From Actinobacteria bacterium UBA3120 (GTDB taxonomy: Bacteria > Actinomycetota > Actinomycetes > S36-B12), in contig DEZY01000133.1 of NCBI GenBank assembly GCA_002365735.1, positions 1-7,763 of the forward strand: 7,763 bases of DNA, read 5' to 3'. The translations under genes were made by a program, and so were the position numbers. The notes beneath the pieces were generated by a model that did no database searches, was not told the DNA's origin, and was given only the letters and a program-made list of their open reading frames with translations. The stretch's first letter is position 1. The number at the start of each line of letters is the position of its first letter. This document shows, piece by piece, positions 1 through 7,763 of this stretch.

Positions 1-598
1 GCGCCGAACAGGGCTCATCCATGAGGAGTACATGTGGATTGACCGCTAGGGCACGAGCAATAACCAGACGCTGCTGCTGCCCCCCTGATAAGTCTCCAGC
101 CGGTGCGTTAAGTCGATCCTTGACTTCTTTCCACAAACCTGCCGAGATCAAAGTTTGTTCAACAAGCTCGTCGTGGTCCTTGCGCTTGAGGCCAGAGAGC
201 TTCAGGCCCGAAAGCACGTTTCCTCGAATTGTCATTGAGGGAAAGGGGTTCGGCTTTTGGAACACCATGCCGATTGCCAGACGGATGTGCACGGGGTCCA
301 CATCCTGTCGGTAGATATCGTCGCCCTCGTAGAGCACCTCACCCGCCAACGCGGCGCCTGGAATCAATTCGTGTAAGCGGTTCAATGTGCGAAGAAAAGT
401 TGATTTACCGCAGCCGGACGGACCGATCAAGGCTGTGACGGTCTTCTTAGGAAAATCAATGTTGACGTTTTCCAAGACTTTGCGCTTTCCAAACCACACG
501 CTGACGCCGTTGGCAGACATCTCAATTTGCTTTGGAGCTTTCTCGGTCCGGGCGATTTCTGCATCTAGCGCTTCCATTGCGATTACTGTCTCTTCCAT
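1..598 (-). CDS. pstB: Phosphate ABC transporter ATP-binding protein PstB (partial, C-terminus beyond left edge)
   Basis: This is the cytoplasmic ATPase of the PstSCAB phosphate importer; it hydrolyses ATP to drive uptake through PstC/PstA. The first 199 codons are present and the frame is open to base 1. Visible motifs are Walker [10 protein letters not shown] (residues 59-67), the Q-loop in FQKPNPFPS (Q114), the ABC signature LSGGQQQR (170-177) and Walker [11 protein letters not shown] (190-199) with catalytic Glu195. The QKPNPFPSM and DEPCSA strings are diagnostic of PstB rather than other ABC ATPases. PstB is normally about 250-260 residues, so roughly 55-60 residues including the switch histidine lie outside the window. 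The first 20-odd residues form a short acidic extension before the ABC core. I chose the ATG at 598 because GAAAGG lies 7 bases upstream; an internal ATG at codon 8 is possible but less well placed. It follows pstA by 32 bases and is surely the same transcript. Confidence 0.96.
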
Positions 599-605
599 TT
601 GATTG

Positions 606-611
606 CCTTTC
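606..611 (-). promoter_or_regulatory. Ribosome binding site of pstB
   Basis: GAAAGG on the minus strand, 7 bases before the ATG at 598, in the 32-base gap between pstA and pstB. It supports the first ATG over the one at codon 8. Confidence 0.6.
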
Positions 612-630
612 GAATTGATCACTTGACTAT

Positions 631-1713
631 TTATTTGTTCATCGAATTGCGACCGGAAAGCAATCGCGTGAGTGTGAATAGCACTGCAACAATCACCATA
701 AGGACCAACGCCGCGCCCCAAGCCCGCGTTACCGCATCAGGATAAGGCTGGGCAACGTTGTCAAATATGAATGTGGGCAGTGCTGAAATCGGATCGGAGA
801 ACGGGTTCACGACTGTTTGATCGTTCTTTAACGCCGTTAACAAAAGTGGCGCCGTCTCACCCACGACACGAGCTACACCCAAAAGCATTGCTGTAATCAC
901 ACCCGTGCGAGCCGCGGGAAGGACCACGTTGAAGACAACTCGAGATCGCGTGGAGCCCAAAGCCAACGCACCTGTTCTCAAATCTTCGGGAACAAGGCGC
1001 AAGACTTCTTCCGCTGTTCGGGCAACCGTGGGAAGCATCAGGATCGCGTAGGCAATCGCGCCCGCTAGTGCGCTTTGCCGCATGACTCCGGTGAGAATGA
1101 AAACCGTCAATACGAACAGGCCTGCGACGACGGAAGGGACCCCGCTCATTGCCTGAACAAAGAATCTCACATAGGGCACCGCGCGGCCACGAATTTCCGT
1201 TACATACACGGCGGTGGCGATTCCCAGGGGAACAGAAATAATTGTTGCAATACCTACAATCAAAAACGTTCCAACAATCGCATGGCCTACGCCGCCGTAA
1301 TCAAGGGGAGTGCTGGGACTGATGTACACACTGTTTTGAAAAATAAATGATGGCCTTAGTGCTTCAAAACCCCGAGCAATAATCGTTGCGAGCATGGACC
1401 CCAATATGACCGCGCTCAGAATCGTGGATCCAATGGCAAAGACTATGAGACCGGAATCCAAGATCCCATGCTTTCCCTTTGCCACGTAGCCCGCTACTCC
1501 AGCGCTCACTAGCTGAAGTGGAAGATAAACGACTATTAGCAGAAGGGGAGCTGCAATTTCTGTGGTGAAGTACAGCACTCCCGCGAACGAAAGCGGAACC
1601 GCGGTGCCCAAAAGTGCCGCTAACCAGAAAGAGGTCGGGCGTTTTGACCAAGGGCGTTGTGGCACCAAGTCTTGCTCCCGAATCTCGGGTGCCTCACTCA
1701 TCAGCGTTGTCAT
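631..1713 (-). CDS. pstA: Phosphate ABC transporter permease PstA
   Basis: One of the two inner-membrane channel subunits of the Pst phosphate importer, 360 aa. The C-terminal two thirds is a standard binding-protein-dependent permease domain: hydrophobic segments at about 141-172, 185-212, 214-232, 268-295 and 332-352, with the EAA coupling loop at about 236-266 ([20 protein letters not shown]) that contacts PstB. The [10 protein letters not shown] stretch (285-294) is typical of PstA. The protein is longer than the roughly 300 residues usual for PstA because of an N-terminal part with a charged, proline-containing cytoplasmic start and two extra hydrophobic segments (about 30-50 and 52-78) before the usual first helix at 88-115. 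The ATG at 1713 overlaps the pstC stop in an ATGA, which implies translational coupling. No strong Shine-Dalgarno is visible; an ATG at codon 5 is the alternative start. The stop is TAA. Confidence 0.95.
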
Positions 1714-2675
1714 GACTTTAGCCGTTCTGTGCGTCGAACAATAAGGTTCGCCAGCATGTTGACCACAAGGGTCATGAGGAAAAGGAAGAAACCAGCCGCG
1801 AGTAGGACATCAACTTCAAAGTCACCCGAAGTCTCACCGAACTTGGACACGATCAAGGTGGCGACGGATCCACCACCTGATTCAATAATGTTGAAGAAAT
1901 TGATGTCGAAAACAATTTTCAGGACGAAGAACACCGCGATTGTTTCACCTAATGCGCGTCCAAGCCCCAGCATCACGCCTCCAACAATCCCTCCTCGCCC
2001 AAATGGCAGCGCCACGTATCGCAACATGGTCCACATTGAGCATCCGAGGGATTCGGCAGCATTGATTAGCTCGGGTGGTGTTCGCTTGAGAACTTCGGCT
2101 GTAACCGATGTGACAATCGGAATCATCATGATTGCCAACACAACACCTGCAATGAAAGGGGTTCCCGTGAAATTTCCTGATTCGTTGGCAAATATTGGGA
2201 TCCAGCCCAGATATTGGTTGAGCAGGGATTGCCATTCTTGTGCCGGAGGTACCAACACATAAAAAGCCCACAGACCAATGATCACCGACGGTATCGCCGC
2301 CATCAGGTCAACGAGGTTGGTCAGAAACTTGGACACCCGCGTTGGTGCAATAAAAACCATGAAAACTGCCAAGAAAATACTGACCGGCACAGCGATCACG
2401 AGTGCGATCACGGCCAGCAAGATTGAGCCGTAGAGCATCCCAGCGATTCCGTATTCGGGCGGAACGCCGATGGTGTCCCAGACCGTTGTCGTGAGAAAGG
2501 ACAGTCCTTGGTCTTGGATGACGGGGACCGCTTTCGCCCCAAGGAAAATAGTGATTCCAGCCAAAATAATCAATGAAGTAAACGCGGCGCCCGTGATAAC
2601 CCGGCTGAAAGCCCTGTCAGCTCTATTTGCCTTTTTGCTGTTGCTGAGATCTCTCAATGGGGTTTCTGCGGCCAC
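1710..2675 (-). CDS. pstC: Phosphate ABC transporter permease PstC
   Basis: The second membrane channel subunit of the Pst phosphate importer, 321 aa, a normal PstC length. Six hydrophobic segments are visible at about 27-50, 80-110, 118-143, 173-195, 230-252 and 287-313. The EAA loop lies at about 194-224 (EVLKRTPPELINAAESLGCS) and docks on PstB. PstC-type strings include GIAGMLYGSI (76-85), AAIPSVIIGLWAFYVLVP (126-143) and LGRALGETIAV (238-248). The start is GTG at 2675: the same frame has a TGA five codons upstream and no other start in between. No Shine-Dalgarno precedes it, and a TATAAG -10 candidate at 2696-2691 would put transcription start only about 9 bases upstream, so a near-leaderless mRNA is likely. 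It is the first gene of pstC-pstA-pstB. pstS, usually directly upstream, is missing; mog lies there instead. The PHO box at 2737-2758 implies PhoP control. Confidence 0.95.
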   Translation of the reverse strand: MAAETPLRDLSNSKKANRADRAFSRVITGAAFTSLIILAGITIFLGAKAVPVIQDQGLSFLTTTVWDTIGVPPEYGIAGMLYGSILLAVIALVIAVPVSIFLAVFMVFIAPTRVSKFLTNLVDLMAAIPSVIIGLWAFYVLVPPAQEWQSLLNQYLGWIPIFANESGNFTGTPFIAGVVLAIMMIPIVTSVTAEVLKRTPPELINAAESLGCSMWTMLRYVALPFGRGGIVGGVMLGLGRALGETIAVFFVLKIVFDINFFNIIESGGGSVATLIVSKFGETSGDFEVDVLLAAGFFLFLMTLVVNMLANLIVRRTERLKS

Positions 2676-2690
2676 GACAGGAATCTGTCA

Positions 2691-2696
2691 CTTATA
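2691..2696 (-). promoter_or_regulatory. Candidate -10 element of the pstCAB promoter
   Basis: TATAAG on the minus strand (2696 to 2691). Transcription would begin near 2684, about 9 bases before the pstC GTG, giving almost no leader, which fits the absence of a Shine-Dalgarno. The -35 position (about 2714-2719, GTGATC) does not resemble TTGACA, as expected for an activator-dependent promoter. Inferred from position and sequence only. Confidence 0.45.
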
Positions 2697-2736
2697 GGTG
2701 GCCAAGGAGACCAGATCACATGAATGCTGGAAACTG

Positions 2737-2758
2737 TTTTGGTGAACGCCAGGTGAAC
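2737..2758 (-). promoter_or_regulatory. PHO box (PhoP binding site) upstream of pstCAB
   Basis: Two adjacent 11-bp direct repeats on the minus strand: GTTCACCTGGC (2758-2748) and GTTCACCAAAA (2747-2737). The seven-base core GTTCACC is identical in both and exactly one 11-bp period apart, the known arrangement of PhoP direct-repeat units in Streptomyces and relatives. In the same register, the unit at 2736-2726 is poor and the one at 2725-2715 (ATTCATGTGAT) keeps TTCA, so the bound array may extend to the -35 position. The site lies 62 bp upstream of the pstC start. The expected role is activation of pstCAB at low phosphate by PhoR-PhoP. The outer end touches the TAG that would close an uninterrupted mog frame. 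Confidence 0.85.
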
Positions 2759-2802
2759 TAGTGGTCGGACCCTGCAATTTGCTCAAGTGCATGAATCACA
2801 AT
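2758..2802 (-). other. Untranslated remnant of the mog C-terminal tail
   Basis: Directly after the mog TAA, the same reading frame continues for 14 sense codons, IVIHALEQIAGSDH, and ends in TAG at 2758-2760. From family knowledge, actinobacterial MogA/MoaB proteins end in a helix of the type xVLxHALxQLxGGDH, so this is the expected end of Mog and not random sequence. It is either a recently lost tail (nonsense mutation), a region reached by stop-codon readthrough, or a sign of a single-base sequence error at 2803-2805. Confidence 0.75.
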
Positions 2803-3237
2803 TTAACCAAGAACCGCAGCTGCATCTTTTGCGCCACCCGGCGAGCCAGGAACATTCACCACCAGGGAGTTGTCTAGTTGACCCGCAATCCCTCGTGACA
2901 GAGCAGCAGTGGAGATTCCGTTTGCGCGGCCATAGTGTCGAATGGCCTCGGCGATCCCGGGAACTTCCCGGTCAATTACTCCCCGAGTGAACTCTGGAGT
3001 TTGATCACTGGGTGAAATACCCGTGCCGCCGGTAGTGACTACCAGAGAGTGTCCTGAATTGACGGCGGCCTTTATTTGGGTGGCGACCTCCGGACCATCG
3101 GGGATTATCACGTTGGGAGAACACACGAAACCGAGTTCAGTAAATGCCTTGAACAAGATTTCCCCTGAAGTGTCCGCTCGAATCCCTTGTGCACCGCGAG
3201 TGGACACGGTAATTATTTGAGCCGTGAAATTACTCAT
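2803..3237 (-). CDS. mog: MogA/MoaB family molybdopterin adenylyltransferase-type protein, C-terminally truncated by an in-frame TAA
   Basis: A MoCF-domain protein of molybdenum cofactor synthesis; the family adenylylates molybdopterin ahead of molybdenum insertion by MoeA. 144 aa as read. Motifs: a first strand with VSTRGAQGIRADTSG (11-25), the nucleotide/pterin loop TTGGTGISPSDQTPE (68-82) with conserved Asp78, ALSRGIAG (112-119) and VNVPGSPGGAKDAAAVL (127-143). The ATG at 3237 overlaps the moaC end by 8 bases and gives the normal family N-terminus; an upstream ATG at 3336 would only add sequence antisense to nothing and wholly inside moaC in another frame, so I reject it. The protein ends at VLG, about 14-15 residues short of the usual end, and the missing tail is encoded in frame after the TAA. 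The catalytic core is intact, so activity may survive, but loss of the final helix could weaken folding or oligomerisation. Last gene of the operon that starts near 7005. Confidence 0.88.
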   Translation of the reverse strand: MSNFTAQIITVSTRGAQGIRADTSGEILFKAFTELGFVCSPNVIIPDGPEVATQIKAAVNSGHSLVVTTGGTGISPSDQTPEFTRGVIDREVPGIAEAIRHYGRANGISTAALSRGIAGQLDNSLVVNVPGSPGGAKDAAAVLG

Positions 3238-3709
3238 GCTCACTTCGCAACCAGTGGCCCGAACGACCACCCTTCTTTTCCAGTAGCTCAACGAATTCGA
3301 TTCGAGCCATTCGGTCAACACCTTTGACCATGTCAATCAGTGTCAATGCGCCAACAGATGCTGCCGTAAGGGCTTCCATTTCGACACCTGTTCGATCTGC
3401 GGTCTTAACCGTGACGGTGATGTGTGAACCCGTTTCATCGAGTTCAACACTTACATCGACACCGTGAATCGCTAGCGGGTGGCACAGTGGAATCAGATCA
3501 CTTGTTTTCTTGGTCGCTGAAATTGCCGCAATCCGCGCAACGGCCAGGGCATCCCCTTTCGGCATGTCACCCGCATTAAGTCGTTCAATGACTTCAGCGC
3601 TCAATGAGACCCTCGAACGAGCGGTGGCCGACCTTTGCGTCACCGTCTTCGCGGTCACGTCGACCATGTGGGCGTCACCCTGTTCATTGAGGTGCGGGAA
3701 TGTGCTCAC
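3230..3709 (-). CDS. moaC: Cyclic pyranopterin monophosphate synthase MoaC
   Basis: Second step of molybdenum cofactor synthesis: with MoaA, it turns GTP into cyclic pyranopterin monophosphate, MoaC forming cPMP from the 3',8-cyclo-GTP intermediate. 159 aa, full length. Family signatures in order: FPHLNEQGDAHMVDVTAK (4-21), MPKGDALAVARIAAI (49-63) with Lys51, LIPLCHPL (72-79) with His77, DRTGVEMEALTAASVGALT (105-123) with Glu110 and Glu112, the IDMVKGVD stretch (125-132) with Asp126 and Lys129, and the end LLEKKGGRSG (142-151). Start is GTG at 3709, four bases overlapping the moeA stop as GTGA, with a strong AAGGAG nine bases upstream. An internal ATG at codon 15 would cut into the conserved N-terminus. 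The stop TAA overlaps the mog start by 8 bases. moaA, moaD and moaE are not in the window. Confidence 0.96.
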   Translation of the reverse strand: MSTFPHLNEQGDAHMVDVTAKTVTQRSATARSRVSLSAEVIERLNAGDMPKGDALAVARIAAISATKKTSDLIPLCHPLAIHGVDVSVELDETGSHITVTVKTADRTGVEMEALTAASVGALTLIDMVKGVDRMARIEFVELLEKKGGRSGHWLRSEHE

Positions 3710-4932
3710 GCTAAATCACTCCTTAAATCAATCACTGAAACGTCGCCATGGTTGGCAACACGGTCAACTCCCACCGGAATCACGATGAGTGCGTCCGCCT
3801 GCGCAAGCCCGCCGAGAACATGTGAGCCTTGACCCGTTCCCACTGGTTCGACCTGGCTGTCTTCCACGAAGCGCGCCCTAGCGAATTGCACTTTGTTGAC
3901 CGGTGAGCGCAATTCACCTTTCAACCTTGCACTTGTTCGGGGACGCTCGAGTACCTTGAGCCCTCGCATCTTGCGAATTGCCGGACGAATGAAAGTCTCA
4001 AACGAAATATAGGCGCTCACCGGGTTCCCGGGAAGGGTGATGATCGGGATAGCTGACTCCCCACTTTTCCCAACACTGCCAAAACCTTGGGGCATGCCCG
4101 GTTGCATGGCAACTTTATGAAACTCAGCAGTCCCTAATTTCAGAAAAGCAGCCTTCACGGGGTCATAAGCACCCATGCTCACCCCGCCGGTTGTGATGAT
4201 CAGATCCGCACGATGAACTTGGTCCTCTAGGATTTCAATCAGCTTGTCTTCGTCGTCTTGCGCGGGTGGAAGCCGATACGCATCTGCCCCACTGTCATTT
4301 GCCGTTGCCGTGATCAAGAAACTATTTGAGTCTGAAATCAAACCAAATTTGAGTTCAGTCCCCGGTTCGACTAATTCACTACCGGTGGCAAGGACCGCGA
4401 CCCGAGGTTTGGGAATCACGGAAATCGATCCGTGCCCGACTGCGGCAATGAGCGCAATCTGTCGTGGCCCCACATAGGTGCCTTTGCCAAGGACTAAGTC
4501 GCCGGCCTTTACGTCCTCGCCTTCGTGCCTAATACAGCTCCCTAGATCAATTGACGCCCGGATCTGAACGCTTTGACTCCCCCCATCGGTGCTTTCGATG
4601 GGGATTACGCTGTCCGCCCCAGCCGGCATTGGAGCACCAGTCATGATTCGAATCGCCTGGCCGCGATGCAGTGTTTCTAGCGATTTGAATCCAGCTGGAA
4701 TATCGTCGATCACGGGAAGGATCACCGGTGAGCTCTCACTTGCATCTACTAGATCCGCTGAGATTACCGCGTATCCGTCCATCGACGAGTTATTAAATGA
4801 GGGCAATGGCCAGCGCGCGTAGATATCTTCAGCGAGAACACAACCATTTACTTCAGAGATTGGTAACTCCATCGGTGGCAGCTCCGCCACACTGTCCAAG
4901 ACCAGGTTTAGGTATTGCGCCACCGTCAGCAT
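3706..4932 (-). CDS. moeA: Molybdopterin molybdenumtransferase MoeA
   Basis: Inserts molybdenum into adenylylated molybdopterin to give active Mo cofactor; cytoplasmic, partner of Mog. 408 aa, the usual MoeA length of about 400. Domains and motifs in order: NSSMDGYAV (48-56), RIMTGAPMPAGADSVIP (95-111), HEGEDVKAGD (136-145), VAVLATGSELVEPG (178-191), SDSNSF (200-205), TTGGVSMGAYDPVK (247-260) of the MoCF domain with Asp257, AMQPGMPQGFG (275-285), TLPGNPVSAYISFETFIRP (299-317) and a C-terminal beta domain from about 325. All the expected residues are present. The ATG at 4932 overlaps the VWA gene's TGA by 7 bases; the upstream Shine-Dalgarno is weak, so coupling is probable. The moeA-moaC-mog order directly behind an ATPase/VWA maturation pair ties cofactor supply to one molybdoenzyme system. 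Confidence 0.96.
   Translation of the reverse strand: MLTVAQYLNLVLDSVAELPPMELPISEVNGCVLAEDIYARWPLPSFNNSSMDGYAVISADLVDASESSPVILPVIDDIPAGFKSLETLHRGQAIRIMTGAPMPAGADSVIPIESTDGGSQSVQIRASIDLGSCIRHEGEDVKAGDLVLGKGTYVGPRQIALIAAVGHGSISVIPKPRVAVLATGSELVEPGTELKFGLISDSNSFLITATANDSGADAYRLPPAQDDEDKLIEILEDQVHRADLIITTGGVSMGAYDPVKAAFLKLGTAEFHKVAMQPGMPQGFGSVGKSGESAIPIITLPGNPVSAYISFETFIRPAIRKMRGLKVLERPRTSARLKGELRSPVNKVQFARARFVEDSQVEPVGTGQGSHVLGGLAQADALIVIPVGVDRVANHGDVSVIDLRSDLA
3719..3724 (-). promoter_or_regulatory. Ribosome binding site of moaC
   Basis: AAGGAG on the minus strand inside the last codons of moeA, 9 bases before the GTG at 3709. It is the strongest Shine-Dalgarno in the five-gene operon and settles the GTG start. 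Confidence 0.75.
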
Positions 4933-6128
4933 GCGGCAACTCTACGCTCTGAGGCGCCAGCGATCGCACCCATCACTTCATTGAGCGCATTCATCGAATG
5001 TCCGGAGACGAATGTGTCAACGTACGGCAGCGCGGCAGCCATCCCGCCGACGAGCGGCTGGTAGGAGGTGACGGCTTTGCGCGGGTTGACCCAAATAATG
5101 TGGTGAGAAAGTCGGGAGAGTCGGGCCATGTGCGTCGCAAGAATTTCTGGATCCTCAATTTCCCAACCGTCAGAGACAATTACCACCACCGCACCGCGGG
5201 CGATTCCACGTCGGCCGAAATCATCAATAAAGGTCTTTATCGATGAGCCAATGCGCGTGCCACCCGACCAGTCTGTTGCAGCATCTGCCGCTTTTTTGTA
5301 AGCCAAGTCAGGTTGTGAAGTGGCAAGCGGTCGGGTGAGTCTGGTCAGGTGGGTTGCGAAAACAAACGCTTCGGCACCCAATGCTTGCACTGCGCCTCTC
5401 ATCAGGTGCAAATAGATCCGCGCATAAGGCTCCATGGACCCCGAAACATCGGCAATCAACACCACCCGACGAGGCTTTGTGGTATGCGATCTCTTGATCA
5501 AGCGGATCGGATCTCCACCGGTTCGATGTGATGCACGAAGGGTCGCTCGCAGATCGAGTTGGTTGCCTTTGCGTGCACGCTGAGTCCTCCGGCGAGTTCG
5601 CAAAGGTGGAACCAACGGTAACTGATCAACCAAGCGGCGAATAAGTGCAAGTTCGTCGGGCGTTAATGTAGAAAAATCGCGTTCGTTGACCCGCTCCTGG
5701 GCGCTCATGGCTGCGAGAACACTAATTTCGCTTTCATCTTCATGGTCACTACTCGGCGCACCGGGAGTTGCGTTGGTTCCCCTGGGACTCGACTCGCTTT
5801 CCCCTGACTTTTTAGATTCGCCGGGGCTTTGTTCCTCCGCAGACACTGCAGACAGCGGCGCTGGTTCACTTAATTCACCACGGAAATCCGCAAAGTCAAA
5901 AATCCCGCGAAAGACTTGTTGGAACACTCGATCAAAGGCTTCCACTCCCCTGATGTCACTTAAGAGGGTCACCCTTGCCAACCAATACAGTTCATCAAGT
6001 TGTGTGGGTTGGGCCAATTCAATGACACTCGCGAATCTGACACTGCGCTCCGGTGTTACGGGGATTCCCGACCTGTGTAGTAGATGTCCGAATGCTGCAC
6101 AAATCTGCGCTAACGGTGAATCATTCAC
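4926..6128 (-). CDS. CoxE-like von Willebrand factor A (VWA) domain protein
   Basis: Cytoplasmic VWA protein of the CoxE family; in CO-oxidising bacteria CoxE works with the AAA+ ATPase CoxD to mature the CO dehydrogenase active site. 400 aa from the chosen GTG at 6128. An N-terminal helical part (about 1-85, with GIPVTPERSVRFA near 22-34) is followed by a serine/acid-rich, probably disordered linker (about 85-144), an arginine-rich stretch (RTRRRTQRAR, 177-186), then the VWA domain from about 220. The metal-binding MIDAS is complete: DVSGS (227-231), Thr291 in WSGGTRIG and Asp320 in VSDGWE. IIWVNPR (344-350) is typical of CoxE. The start at 6128 overlaps the ATPase stop by 8 bases, as elsewhere in this operon; a GTG at 6176 (416 aa, 56-base overlap, no Shine-Dalgarno) is the alternative. 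No signal peptide or membrane segment is visible. The link to CO dehydrogenase specifically is inference, since no structural cox gene is in view. Confidence 0.88.
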   Translation of the reverse strand: MNDSPLAQICAAFGHLLHRSGIPVTPERSVRFASVIELAQPTQLDELYWLARVTLLSDIRGVEAFDRVFQQVFRGIFDFADFRGELSEPAPLSAVSAEEQSPGESKKSGESESSPRGTNATPGAPSSDHEDESEISVLAAMSAQERVNERDFSTLTPDELALIRRLVDQLPLVPPLRTRRRTQRARKGNQLDLRATLRASHRTGGDPIRLIKRSHTTKPRRVVLIADVSGSMEPYARIYLHLMRGAVQALGAEAFVFATHLTRLTRPLATSQPDLAYKKAADAATDWSGGTRIGSSIKTFIDDFGRRGIARGAVVVIVSDGWEIEDPEILATHMARLSRLSHHIIWVNPRKAVTSYQPLVGGMAAALPYVDTFVSGHSMNALNEVMGAIAGASERRVAAC

Positions 6129-7005
6129 CGGCGATCCAGGCCAAGCCTTGCTCACGAGCCAGTTCTTGGTCGTCACGGTATTTCAATACCGATCCAAGGG
6201 TTTGCTCTGTTCCCCTGGCATCAAGTGTGCTCACCCCAAGGAGCATTGCCGCATTCACCCAGTCAATTGCTTCGGCCACCCCTGGTGGCTTCTGCATGTC
6301 GAGAGTTCGAATGCGTGACACTGCTGAAGCAACCTGCTCGGCCAGATCCTTACTGGCCTTGGGCGCCCGCAATTTAACAATCTGCGTTGCATGTTCCAAG
6401 CTTGGGTAATCAATCCAGTGATACAAACAACGCCGCTTGAGTGCGTCGTGTAAATCTCGGGTTCGATTAGAAGTCAAAATAACGATCGGTTTTTGCTGTG
6501 CCGTCAGGGTGCCCAGCTCAGGAACACTGACGGTTGATTCGGCTAACATCTCAAACAGAAATGCTTCAAATTCCTCGTCCGCTCGATCCACTTCGTCGAT
6601 CAACAGTACGGCTGGGTTTGGCCCAACGTGTTCCAATGCTTGCAACAGCGGCCGTTCAATCAAGAACTCACGACTAAACAATGAACTTTCCTCAATTGAT
6701 TTACCTTGGGACTCCGCCATTCGAATACTTAATAATTGTCGCGGGTAGTTCCATTCATAAAGTGCCTCTGATGCATCAATCCCCTCAAAGCACTGCAACC
6801 GAATCAACGGAGTGTCTAGGAGTTGCGCGAGGGCTTTAGCGGCCTGGGTTTTGCCCACACCCGCTTCACCTTCTAGGAGCAGGGGCTGTGGCAAGCGGAC
6901 CGCACAAAACAGCGCGGTTGCCAGCCCCGGTTCAGCCAAGTAGTCAGCTTTCGCTAATTCTTGGATCAACTGCTGGGGTGACTCGATCTCGCTTGCAAAA
7001 CTCAC
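6121..7005 (-). CDS. MoxR/CoxD-like AAA+ ATPase
   Basis: AAA+ ATPase of the MoxR family, closest in motif style to CoxD, a chaperone-like ATPase that remodels molybdenum hydroxylases together with a VWA partner. 294 aa from the GTG at 7005. Motifs: Walker A GEAGVGKT (46-53), LIRLQCFEGID (67-77), ALYEWNYPRQLL (81-92), Walker B VLLIDEVDRADEEFEAFLFE (133-152), sensor 1 LTSN (177-180), arginine finger in LKRRC (191/192) and a sensor-2-like PGVAEAIDW (241-249). The start was chosen because VSFASEIESPQQLIQEL aligns with the MSFDQLTVPQLTEAL start of the paralogue at 7438; the frame stays open to a TTG at 7080, but that extension lies in the divergent promoter region and has no homologous counterpart. 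No clear Shine-Dalgarno. First gene of the five-gene operon; its TGA overlaps the VWA start. Confidence 0.9.
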   Translation of the reverse strand: MSFASEIESPQQLIQELAKADYLAEPGLATALFCAVRLPQPLLLEGEAGVGKTQAAKALAQLLDTPLIRLQCFEGIDASEALYEWNYPRQLLSIRMAESQGKSIEESSLFSREFLIERPLLQALEHVGPNPAVLLIDEVDRADEEFEAFLFEMLAESTVSVPELGTLTAQQKPIVILTSNRTRDLHDALKRRCLYHWIDYPSLEHATQIVKLRAPKASKDLAEQVASAVSRIRTLDMQKPPGVAEAIDWVNAAMLLGVSTLDARGTEQTLGSVLKYRDDQELAREQGLAWIAGE

Positions 7006-7077
7006 AGGACACACGCTAACGAGTTTTTGTGCATCTGCACCCCACTTTCTGTATCCTGGATGACCGTAATTGTGAGG

Positions 7078-7115
7078 CAATTATTGGGTGCAAGGGCCTT
7101 GCCATCCCAATATTG
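7078..7115. repeat. 38-bp imperfect inverted repeat in the divergent intergenic region (possible operator)
   Basis: Outer arms CAATTATTGGG (7078-7088) and CCCAATATTG (7106-7115) pair with one extra T on the left. Nested inside is a near-perfect 13-base palindrome, GCAAGGGCCTTGC (7090-7102). One base separates the arms on the left and three on the right. It lies between the minus-strand ATPase start (7005) and the plus-strand gene start (7184). A -35-like TTGACC (7113-7118, plus strand) overlaps its right edge, though no well-spaced -10 follows (TAGAGT at 7132 is too close, TATCGT at 7145 too far). No T-tract follows on either strand, so a terminator is unlikely; a regulator-binding site is my inference. 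Confidence 0.6.
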
Positions 7116-7170
7116 ACCTTTCTGCGGCGTCTAGAGTTTGCTGGTATCGTTATGAGTACTAAGAACCCTT

Positions 7171-7176
7171 AAGGAG
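7171..7176 (+). promoter_or_regulatory. Ribosome binding site of the 82-aa protein
   Basis: AAGGAG 7 bases before the ATG at 7184. A closer in-frame ATG at 7178 leaves only one base of spacing, so 7184 is the better start. Confidence 0.75.
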
Positions 7177-7183
7177 TATGGCC

Positions 7184-7432
7184 ATGTCACATGAGAGCGA
7201 TCAAGCCGCAGAAGCACTTCGCACTATCTGGCAGGGAAATCCCGGGACAGCGAATGAATTCGACGAAGAATGCAGTCCCAACAAGGTCTGCCGCAACATG
7301 AAAGATGTCTCCTTTGACGGATTCGCCGAGGACGGCGTCGACTTAGGAACAGCCTGGCGCAGCAAATTGGCCCGTGAAGGCAAACTCAGTGGGGCCTCAC
7401 TAGCCGACCTAGTTATGGGTAAAACGGACTAA
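7184..7432 (+). CDS. Small acidic protein of unknown function (82 aa)
   Basis: I do not recognise this family. The strong AAGGAG site 7 bases upstream, a clean TAA end and a gap of only 5 bases to the following ATPase gene support a real gene cotranscribed with it. The protein is soluble-looking, rich in Asp/Glu, with no membrane segment or signal peptide. It has two cysteines in a Cys-X5-Cys arrangement (Cys30 and Cys36, within EECSPNKVCRNMK), too few for a classical metal site alone. The C-terminal half (KLAREGKLSGASLADLVMG, 61-79) looks like a short amphipathic helical part. An ATG at 7178 would add two residues but is badly spaced. The reverse strand here also has an open frame, but without a ribosome site. 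By position it could be a regulator, adaptor or substrate of the adjacent MoxR ATPase; that is a guess from neighbourhood. Confidence 0.7.
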   Translation: MSHESDQAAEALRTIWQGNPGTANEFDEECSPNKVCRNMKDVSFDGFAEDGVDLGTAWRSKLAREGKLSGASLADLVMGKTD

Positions 7433-7437
7433 CATCC

Positions 7438-7763
7438 ATGTCTTTTGATCAACTCACCGTCCCACAGCTCACGGAAGCGTTGGCAGAGCACAAGTACATC
7501 GCCGATCGTGGGCTCAGCACAGCGCTGCTGCTTGCCCTCAAACTCGGTAAGCCGCTACTTCTTGAAGGTGAAGTCGGCGTCGGGAAAACAGAGCTGGCTA
7601 AAACCGTGTCAACTCTATTAGGTCGCGAACTAATCCGCCTCCAGTGCTACGAAGGCATTGACATGCATCAGGCGCTCTACGAATGGGACTACGCGCGCCA
7701 AATGCTTTTTGTTCGCTCCCTGGGATCAGATGAGGCCTCAGATGATCAACTTTTTGGTCCGCG
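7438..7763 (+). CDS. Second MoxR-family AAA+ ATPase (partial, C-terminus beyond right edge)
   Basis: First 108 codons of a MoxR/CoxD-type AAA+ ATPase, open to the right edge. Visible: an N-terminal helix (MSFDQLTVPQLTEALAEHKY), Walker A GEVGVGKT (44-51), LIRLQCYEGID (65-75) and ALYEWDYARQML (79-90). Walker B, sensors and arginine finger lie outside the window. By-eye alignment with the minus-strand ATPase over 86 positions gives about 49 identities, so the two are paralogues of the same subfamily. The ATG at 7438 is 5 bases after the small gene's stop; no strong Shine-Dalgarno, so coupling is likely. Such genes are commonly followed by a VWA partner, which would be expected just to the right. 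The substrate is not determinable from this fragment. Confidence 0.9.
   Translation, partial: MSFDQLTVPQLTEALAEHKYIADRGLSTALLLALKLGKPLLLEGEVGVGKTELAKTVSTLLGRELIRLQCYEGIDMHQALYEWDYARQMLFVRSLGSDEASDDQLFGP

What the first reader, a model, noticed from the sequence alone, without database searches (positions are those of the whole stretch)
2758..2805. In-frame stop truncates Mog just before a conserved C-terminal tail
The mog frame hits TAA at 2803-2805, yet the same frame continues as IVIHALEQIAGSDH and stops at TAG (2760-2758). That tail matches how actinobacterial Mog proteins end (HALxQLxGGDH type). The tail is therefore under recent or present protein-level constraint. Options are a fresh nonsense mutation, functional stop readthrough giving two Mog isoforms, or an assembly/sequencing error. 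TAA as a reassigned codon is unlikely because TAA also ends pstA, moaC and the small gene at proper places.
Basis: partly seen in the sequence, partly recalled or inferred. Interest (0 to 1): 0.7.

Follow-up and report, generated by a model that had tools for sequence, protein, structure and literature searches.

The report
Private stop codon in mog
In what is likely a metagenome-assembled actinobacterium, a stop codon sits near the end of a molybdenum-cofactor gene where the close relatives examined all have a sense codon, likely an ordinary rare broken copy or a sequence error rather than a new mechanism.

Summary
On the minus strand mog (ATG at 3237) stops at TAA 2805-2803 after 144 codons; the frame continues as IVIHALEQIAGSDH to TAG 2760-2758. 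The tail is real Mog sequence: 119 of 121 aligned Mog proteins carry it, and 8 of 8 genus relatives with a mog match have a sense codon at the stop site. The nearest (G005, UBA7422) is identical over mog except for this one base (GAA there, TAA here). In a class-wide search (394 genomes, 349 with a match) the window's row is the only listed one with an internal stop. The stop is therefore private among what was examined, which does not fit programmed readthrough. The window is also a mosaic: 1-4112 is 99.5% identical to G005, 4113-7020 only 73%, with a sharp switch inside moeA; the same bin holds a second, partial mog-pst locus with a sense codon. The mog half is probably a chimeric join to a co-occurring UBA7422-like strain. 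Best reading: a private nonsense allele, with a consensus error nearly as likely. The cut removes half of the predicted last helix and the conserved GxDH end. Ordinary; low interest. Raw reads would decide.

The parts
2803..3237 (-). mog open reading frame as it stands (144 codons plus TAA)
   Evidence: NCBIfam TIGR00177 89.1 bits against a cut-off of 85.35
2803..2805 (-). premature TAA; the aligned codon is GAA (Glu) in G005/UBA7422 and in the bin's second copy on C50
2758..2802 (-). conserved Mog tail IVIHALEQIAGSDH behind the stop, with its TAG
   Evidence: 119 of 121 aligned proteins carry the tail
3230..3709 (-). moaC; its end overlaps the mog start by 8 bases
1..4112 (.). stretch 99.5% identical to G005 (UBA7422) contig C95: 22 differences, 13 of them in moaC 3395-3608
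4113..7020 (.). stretch 73% identical to G005; G009 is 85-96% identical in the eleven 250-base bins from 4251 to 7000, G002:C43 mostly 84-94% from about 4941
4100..4114 (.). sharp switch point inside moeA (first mismatch to G005 on the far side is 4114)

Best explanation
A single base differs between this mog and that of its nearest relative and turns a glutamate codon into TAA, likely a private nonsense mutation that truncates an otherwise ordinary Mog. Shown: the one-base difference, the open frame in relatives, the conserved tail. Inferred: that the change is real and not a consensus error; that the 144-residue product, which lacks the second half of the predicted last helix and the conserved GxDH end, is impaired in molybdopterin adenylylation; that this is tolerated, as an E. 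coli mogA strain is repaired by excess molybdate. The allele likely belongs to a UBA7422-like strain whose sequence was joined in assembly to a contig of another species of the same genus.
For: G005 Mog is 100% identical over the 143 aligned residues and position 2805 is the only difference over mog. The 8 genus genomes with a match, of 11 genus relatives searched, read on with E (5), A, P or Q at the site, as does C50 of the same bin with E. P0001, 99% identical and differing from UBA7422 by one residue in the tail, is also full length; no source is given for it. In the class-wide search (394 genomes, 349 with a match) no other listed row has an internal stop; further rows were not printed. 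Of the 22 differences from G005, 16 are synonymous, 5 missense and 1 nonsense, so most look like strain variation under selection. The predicted last helix is 133-154 in the full protein and 133-143 in the cut one. mogA repair by molybdate: passage seen in PMC9458074.
Against: No reads or coverage were available, so a consensus error cannot be excluded. The base lies in a stretch that was probably joined chimerically, where the consensus may be less trustworthy. Moco genes are otherwise kept in the genus (MoaE in 10 of 11 genomes, MoCoBD_1 in 9 of 11, the own genome counted), so loss of mog is not expected. The cut protein is still predicted to fold with high confidence (mean pLDDT 92.1) and still passes TIGR00177, so it is not shown to be inactive.
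Confidence: 0.52

Rival explanations
1. Consensus or assembly error: the base is wrong and the strain has an ordinary full-length mog.
For: The stop is unique among the relatives examined. The bin is fragmented (188 contigs; runs of N in several), and the contig is probably chimeric, with a sharp switch at about 4112. One lone disruptive change in a constrained gene fits an error.
Against: The other differences in the same stretch are mostly synonymous (16 of 22), so the consensus there does not look generally noisy, and the other genes in it keep open frames.
Confidence: 0.36
2. The shortened Mog is functional; the last 15 residues are dispensable in this strain, so the stop is nearly neutral.
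For: The cut protein is predicted to keep the core fold (mean pLDDT 92.1) and still passes the TIGR00177 cut-off.
Against: The lost H, Q, G, D and H are present in 119 of 121 aligned proteins and invariant in a 41-row alignment, for which I chose UBA7422 plus 40 of the 120 listed homologues, the two short ones not among them.
Confidence: 0.07
3. Programmed stop readthrough makes two Mog isoforms.
For: The downstream frame is open and conserved up to TAG.
Against: The stop is absent from the relatives examined and from the second copy in the bin. Recent descent explains the intact tail, as UBA7422 differs by one base over mog.
Confidence: 0.03

Closest known systems
MogA/MoaB-family molybdopterin adenylyltransferase (actinobacterial-type Mog; solved examples 2g4r, 4twg)
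   Same: Same family: residues 3-156 of the 156-residue UBA7422 query align to residues 5-157 of 2g4r and 6-158 of 4twg; moeA-moaC-mog order.
   Different: The window's frame is cut after 144 codons by a stop that the relatives examined lack.
Nonsense polymorphism / incipient pseudogene
   Same: Single derived stop in an otherwise intact frame.
   Different: No second disabling change, and the reality of the base is not proven.
Interspecies chimeric contig in a metagenome-assembled genome (the kind of problem that GUNC addresses; start of the abstract of PMC8201837 seen in the listing)
   Same: Sharp identity switch on one contig and two versions of one locus in the bin.
   Different: Both parts are from one genus, and reads were not available to prove a false join.

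Membership tests
MogA/MoaB family (TIGR00177, PF00994) | Profile match above curated cut-off | tested here: met
   TIGR00177: 89.1 bits against 85.35 for the cut protein
MogA/MoaB family (TIGR00177, PF00994) | Complete C-terminal helix and GxDH end as in related Mog proteins | tested here: not met
   Cut by TAA; tail present in 119 of 121 aligned proteins
MogA/MoaB family (TIGR00177, PF00994) | Catalytic Asp residues (E. coli MogA Asp49, Asp82) | tested here: inconclusive
   Invariant D47 and D78 lie at fitting places but were not aligned residue by residue to E. coli MogA; roles from passages of PMC9458074
Nonsense allele | Stop is derived: sense codon in nearest relatives | tested here: met
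   8 of 8 genus genomes with a match (11 searched), plus C50
Nonsense allele | Present in reads, not a consensus error | not testable with these tools
   No reads held
Programmed stop readthrough | Stop and downstream frame conserved together across relatives | tested here: not met
   Only the window's row lists an internal stop among the rows printed; sense codon in the 8 genus relatives with mog
Programmed stop readthrough | Longer product detected | not testable with these tools
   No proteomics
Chimeric MAG contig | Sharp identity switch and both versions of a locus in one bin | tested here: met
   99.5% to 73% at about 4112; C50 second mog-pst locus
Chimeric MAG contig | No read pairs spanning the junction | not testable with these tools
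   No reads held

The most novel reading that the evidence does not exclude
A strain-specific leaky TAA in mog lets the cell make a short and a long Mog, tuning molybdenum-cofactor synthesis by translation termination.
Probability: 0.03. Interest if true: 0.6.

Novelty: new member of a known kind. Interest (0 to 1): 0.12.

Why it matters
Mainly a caution. A conserved tail behind a stop can look like readthrough, yet comparison with one near-identical relative shows a single private base change, on a contig that probably mixes two species of one genus. If the nonsense allele is real, it is a small example of a cofactor gene breaking in one strain of an actinobacterial population.

Tried and rejected
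Reassigned TAA: rejected, since pstA and moaC end in TAA at proper places. Readthrough: rejected as best reading because the stop was found in no relative examined. Loss of mog because the genus gave up molybdenum: not supported, as MoaE is found in 10 of 11 and MoCoBD_1 in 9 of 11 genomes drawn from the genus, own genome counted. Natural homologous replacement of the moeA-to-pst stretch as cause of the mosaic: possible, held less likely than a false join because the bin also has another version of mog-pst. Plasmid search gave no match. Literature searches: 15 of 26 listed; 12 of 257; 10 of 14; 0 found for UBA7422; 10 of 50; among the listed titles I saw none on a mog nonsense variant or mog readthrough, which is not a proof of absence. 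One paper was looked into, PMC9458074, by passages only. Structure models of full and cut Mog differ little apart from the missing end (strand 38-45 is shortened to 43-45 in the cut model), so they do not decide whether the cut protein works.

Full report
What is there. On the minus strand the window holds moeA (4932-3706), moaC (3709-3230), mog (from 3237), pstC (2675-1710) and pstA (1713-631), named by NCBIfam matches, and part of a pstB-like frame (named by eye). The mog frame meets TAA at 2805-2803 after 144 codons and goes on as IVIHALEQIAGSDH to TAG at 2760-2758.

The tail is Mog sequence. In an alignment of the UBA7422 Mog (L058) with the 120 homologues listed (of 7946 that passed the limit), 119 of 121 carry the tail, with its H, Q, G, D and H in all 119. 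The two without are P0039, which ends LGEL, and P0059, which diverges earlier.

The stop is private among what was examined. Of 11 genus relatives searched, 8 have a mog match (G002, G003, G005-G009, G011; none in G001, G004, G010), and all 8 read on past the site with E, A, P or Q. G005 C95 is UBA7422 contig DKME01000045.1, to judge by equal length (36,088) and a 100% match. Over mog it differs from the window at one base, 2805. P0001, 99% identical, is full length too. A class-wide search with the full protein (394 genomes, 349 with a match) lists an internal stop for one row, the window's own; rows beyond those printed were not seen.

The window is a mosaic. Positions 1-4112 differ from G005 at 22 places (99.5% identity) and 4113-7020 at 790 places (73%), the first mismatch beyond the switch being 4114. 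In the far part G009 is 85-96% identical in the eleven 250-base bins from 4251 to 7000 and 74-87% in the three full bins after that. The rest of the contig (C55, 10,026 bases) is 84-91% to G009 against 72-77% to G005 in the pieces that align. The first 20 kb of C1 is 85-89% to G003/G009 in most pieces (one of G009 at 76%) and 73-80% to G005 (short pieces down to 70%); a G005 contig searched in the bin found 68-77% and one piece at 87%. So the bin's main lineage is not G005's species. The same bin holds a second, partial mog followed by pst sequence on C50: 94% to G009 and 91% to G003 at its start, 73% to the window, with a sense codon at the site. C50 itself goes over to 98-100% identity with G005:C149 from 6175 on. 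Most simply, two species of one genus were mixed in assembly and C55 carries a false join inside moeA. Natural recombination is not excluded. The order Nanopelagicales is inferred from record titles of relatives.

Nature of the change. The 22 differences are 16 synonymous, 5 missense and 1 nonsense. Thirteen lie in moaC 3395-3608, nine elsewhere. This looks like strain variation under selection, with the nonsense as the outlier. Whether the outlier is a real mutation or a consensus error cannot be told without reads; I lean slightly to a real private allele (inference).

Consequence. AlphaFold models place the last helix at 133-154 in the full protein (mean pLDDT 92.5) and end it at 143 in the cut one (mean 92.1). 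Loss of half the helix and of the conserved end would likely impair the enzyme; this is untested. An E. coli mogA strain is repairable with excess molybdate (PMC9458074, passage seen), so a defect could be tolerated.

Verdict. A correct and careful observation of an ordinary thing: one private stop codon in a known gene, on a contig of probably mixed origin. No sign of a new decoding mechanism.

Noticed in passing
window 4100-4114: Sharp switch of identity inside moeA from 99.5% to 73% against G005 (UBA7422), with the far side close to G009: probable false join or recent recombination.
   Followed up: yes
L034 (G000:C50) 1-7720: Second partial mog-pst locus in the same bin, itself going over to 98-100% identity with G005:C149 from 6175 on.
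   Followed up: partly
window 3395-3608: 13 of the 22 differences from G005 crowd into this part of moaC; perhaps a short recombined tract or another strain.
   Followed up: no
L047 (G003:C106) and L079 (G009:C18), downstream of mog: The pst genes after mog seem absent, or reduced to the start of pstC in G003, since matches jump from mog to a later gene; they follow mog in G000 (C50, C55), G005 and G002.
   Followed up: no
P0039: Another Mog that ends early (LGEL) although otherwise like P0003; its DNA was not seen, so contig end, frameshift or error is open.
   Followed up: no
P0001: Its longest contig is 10,034 bases, near the 10,026 of C55, and no source is given; whether it is an independent assembly of the same strain is unknown.
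   Followed up: no
window 4926-7080 (-) and 7438-7761 (+): VWA-domain frame and AAA ATPase frame matching MadC (72.6 bits, cut-off 600) and MadB (271.4 bits, cut-off 475) models below their cut-offs, and a second, divergently oriented ATPase-like frame (by eye).
   Followed up: no
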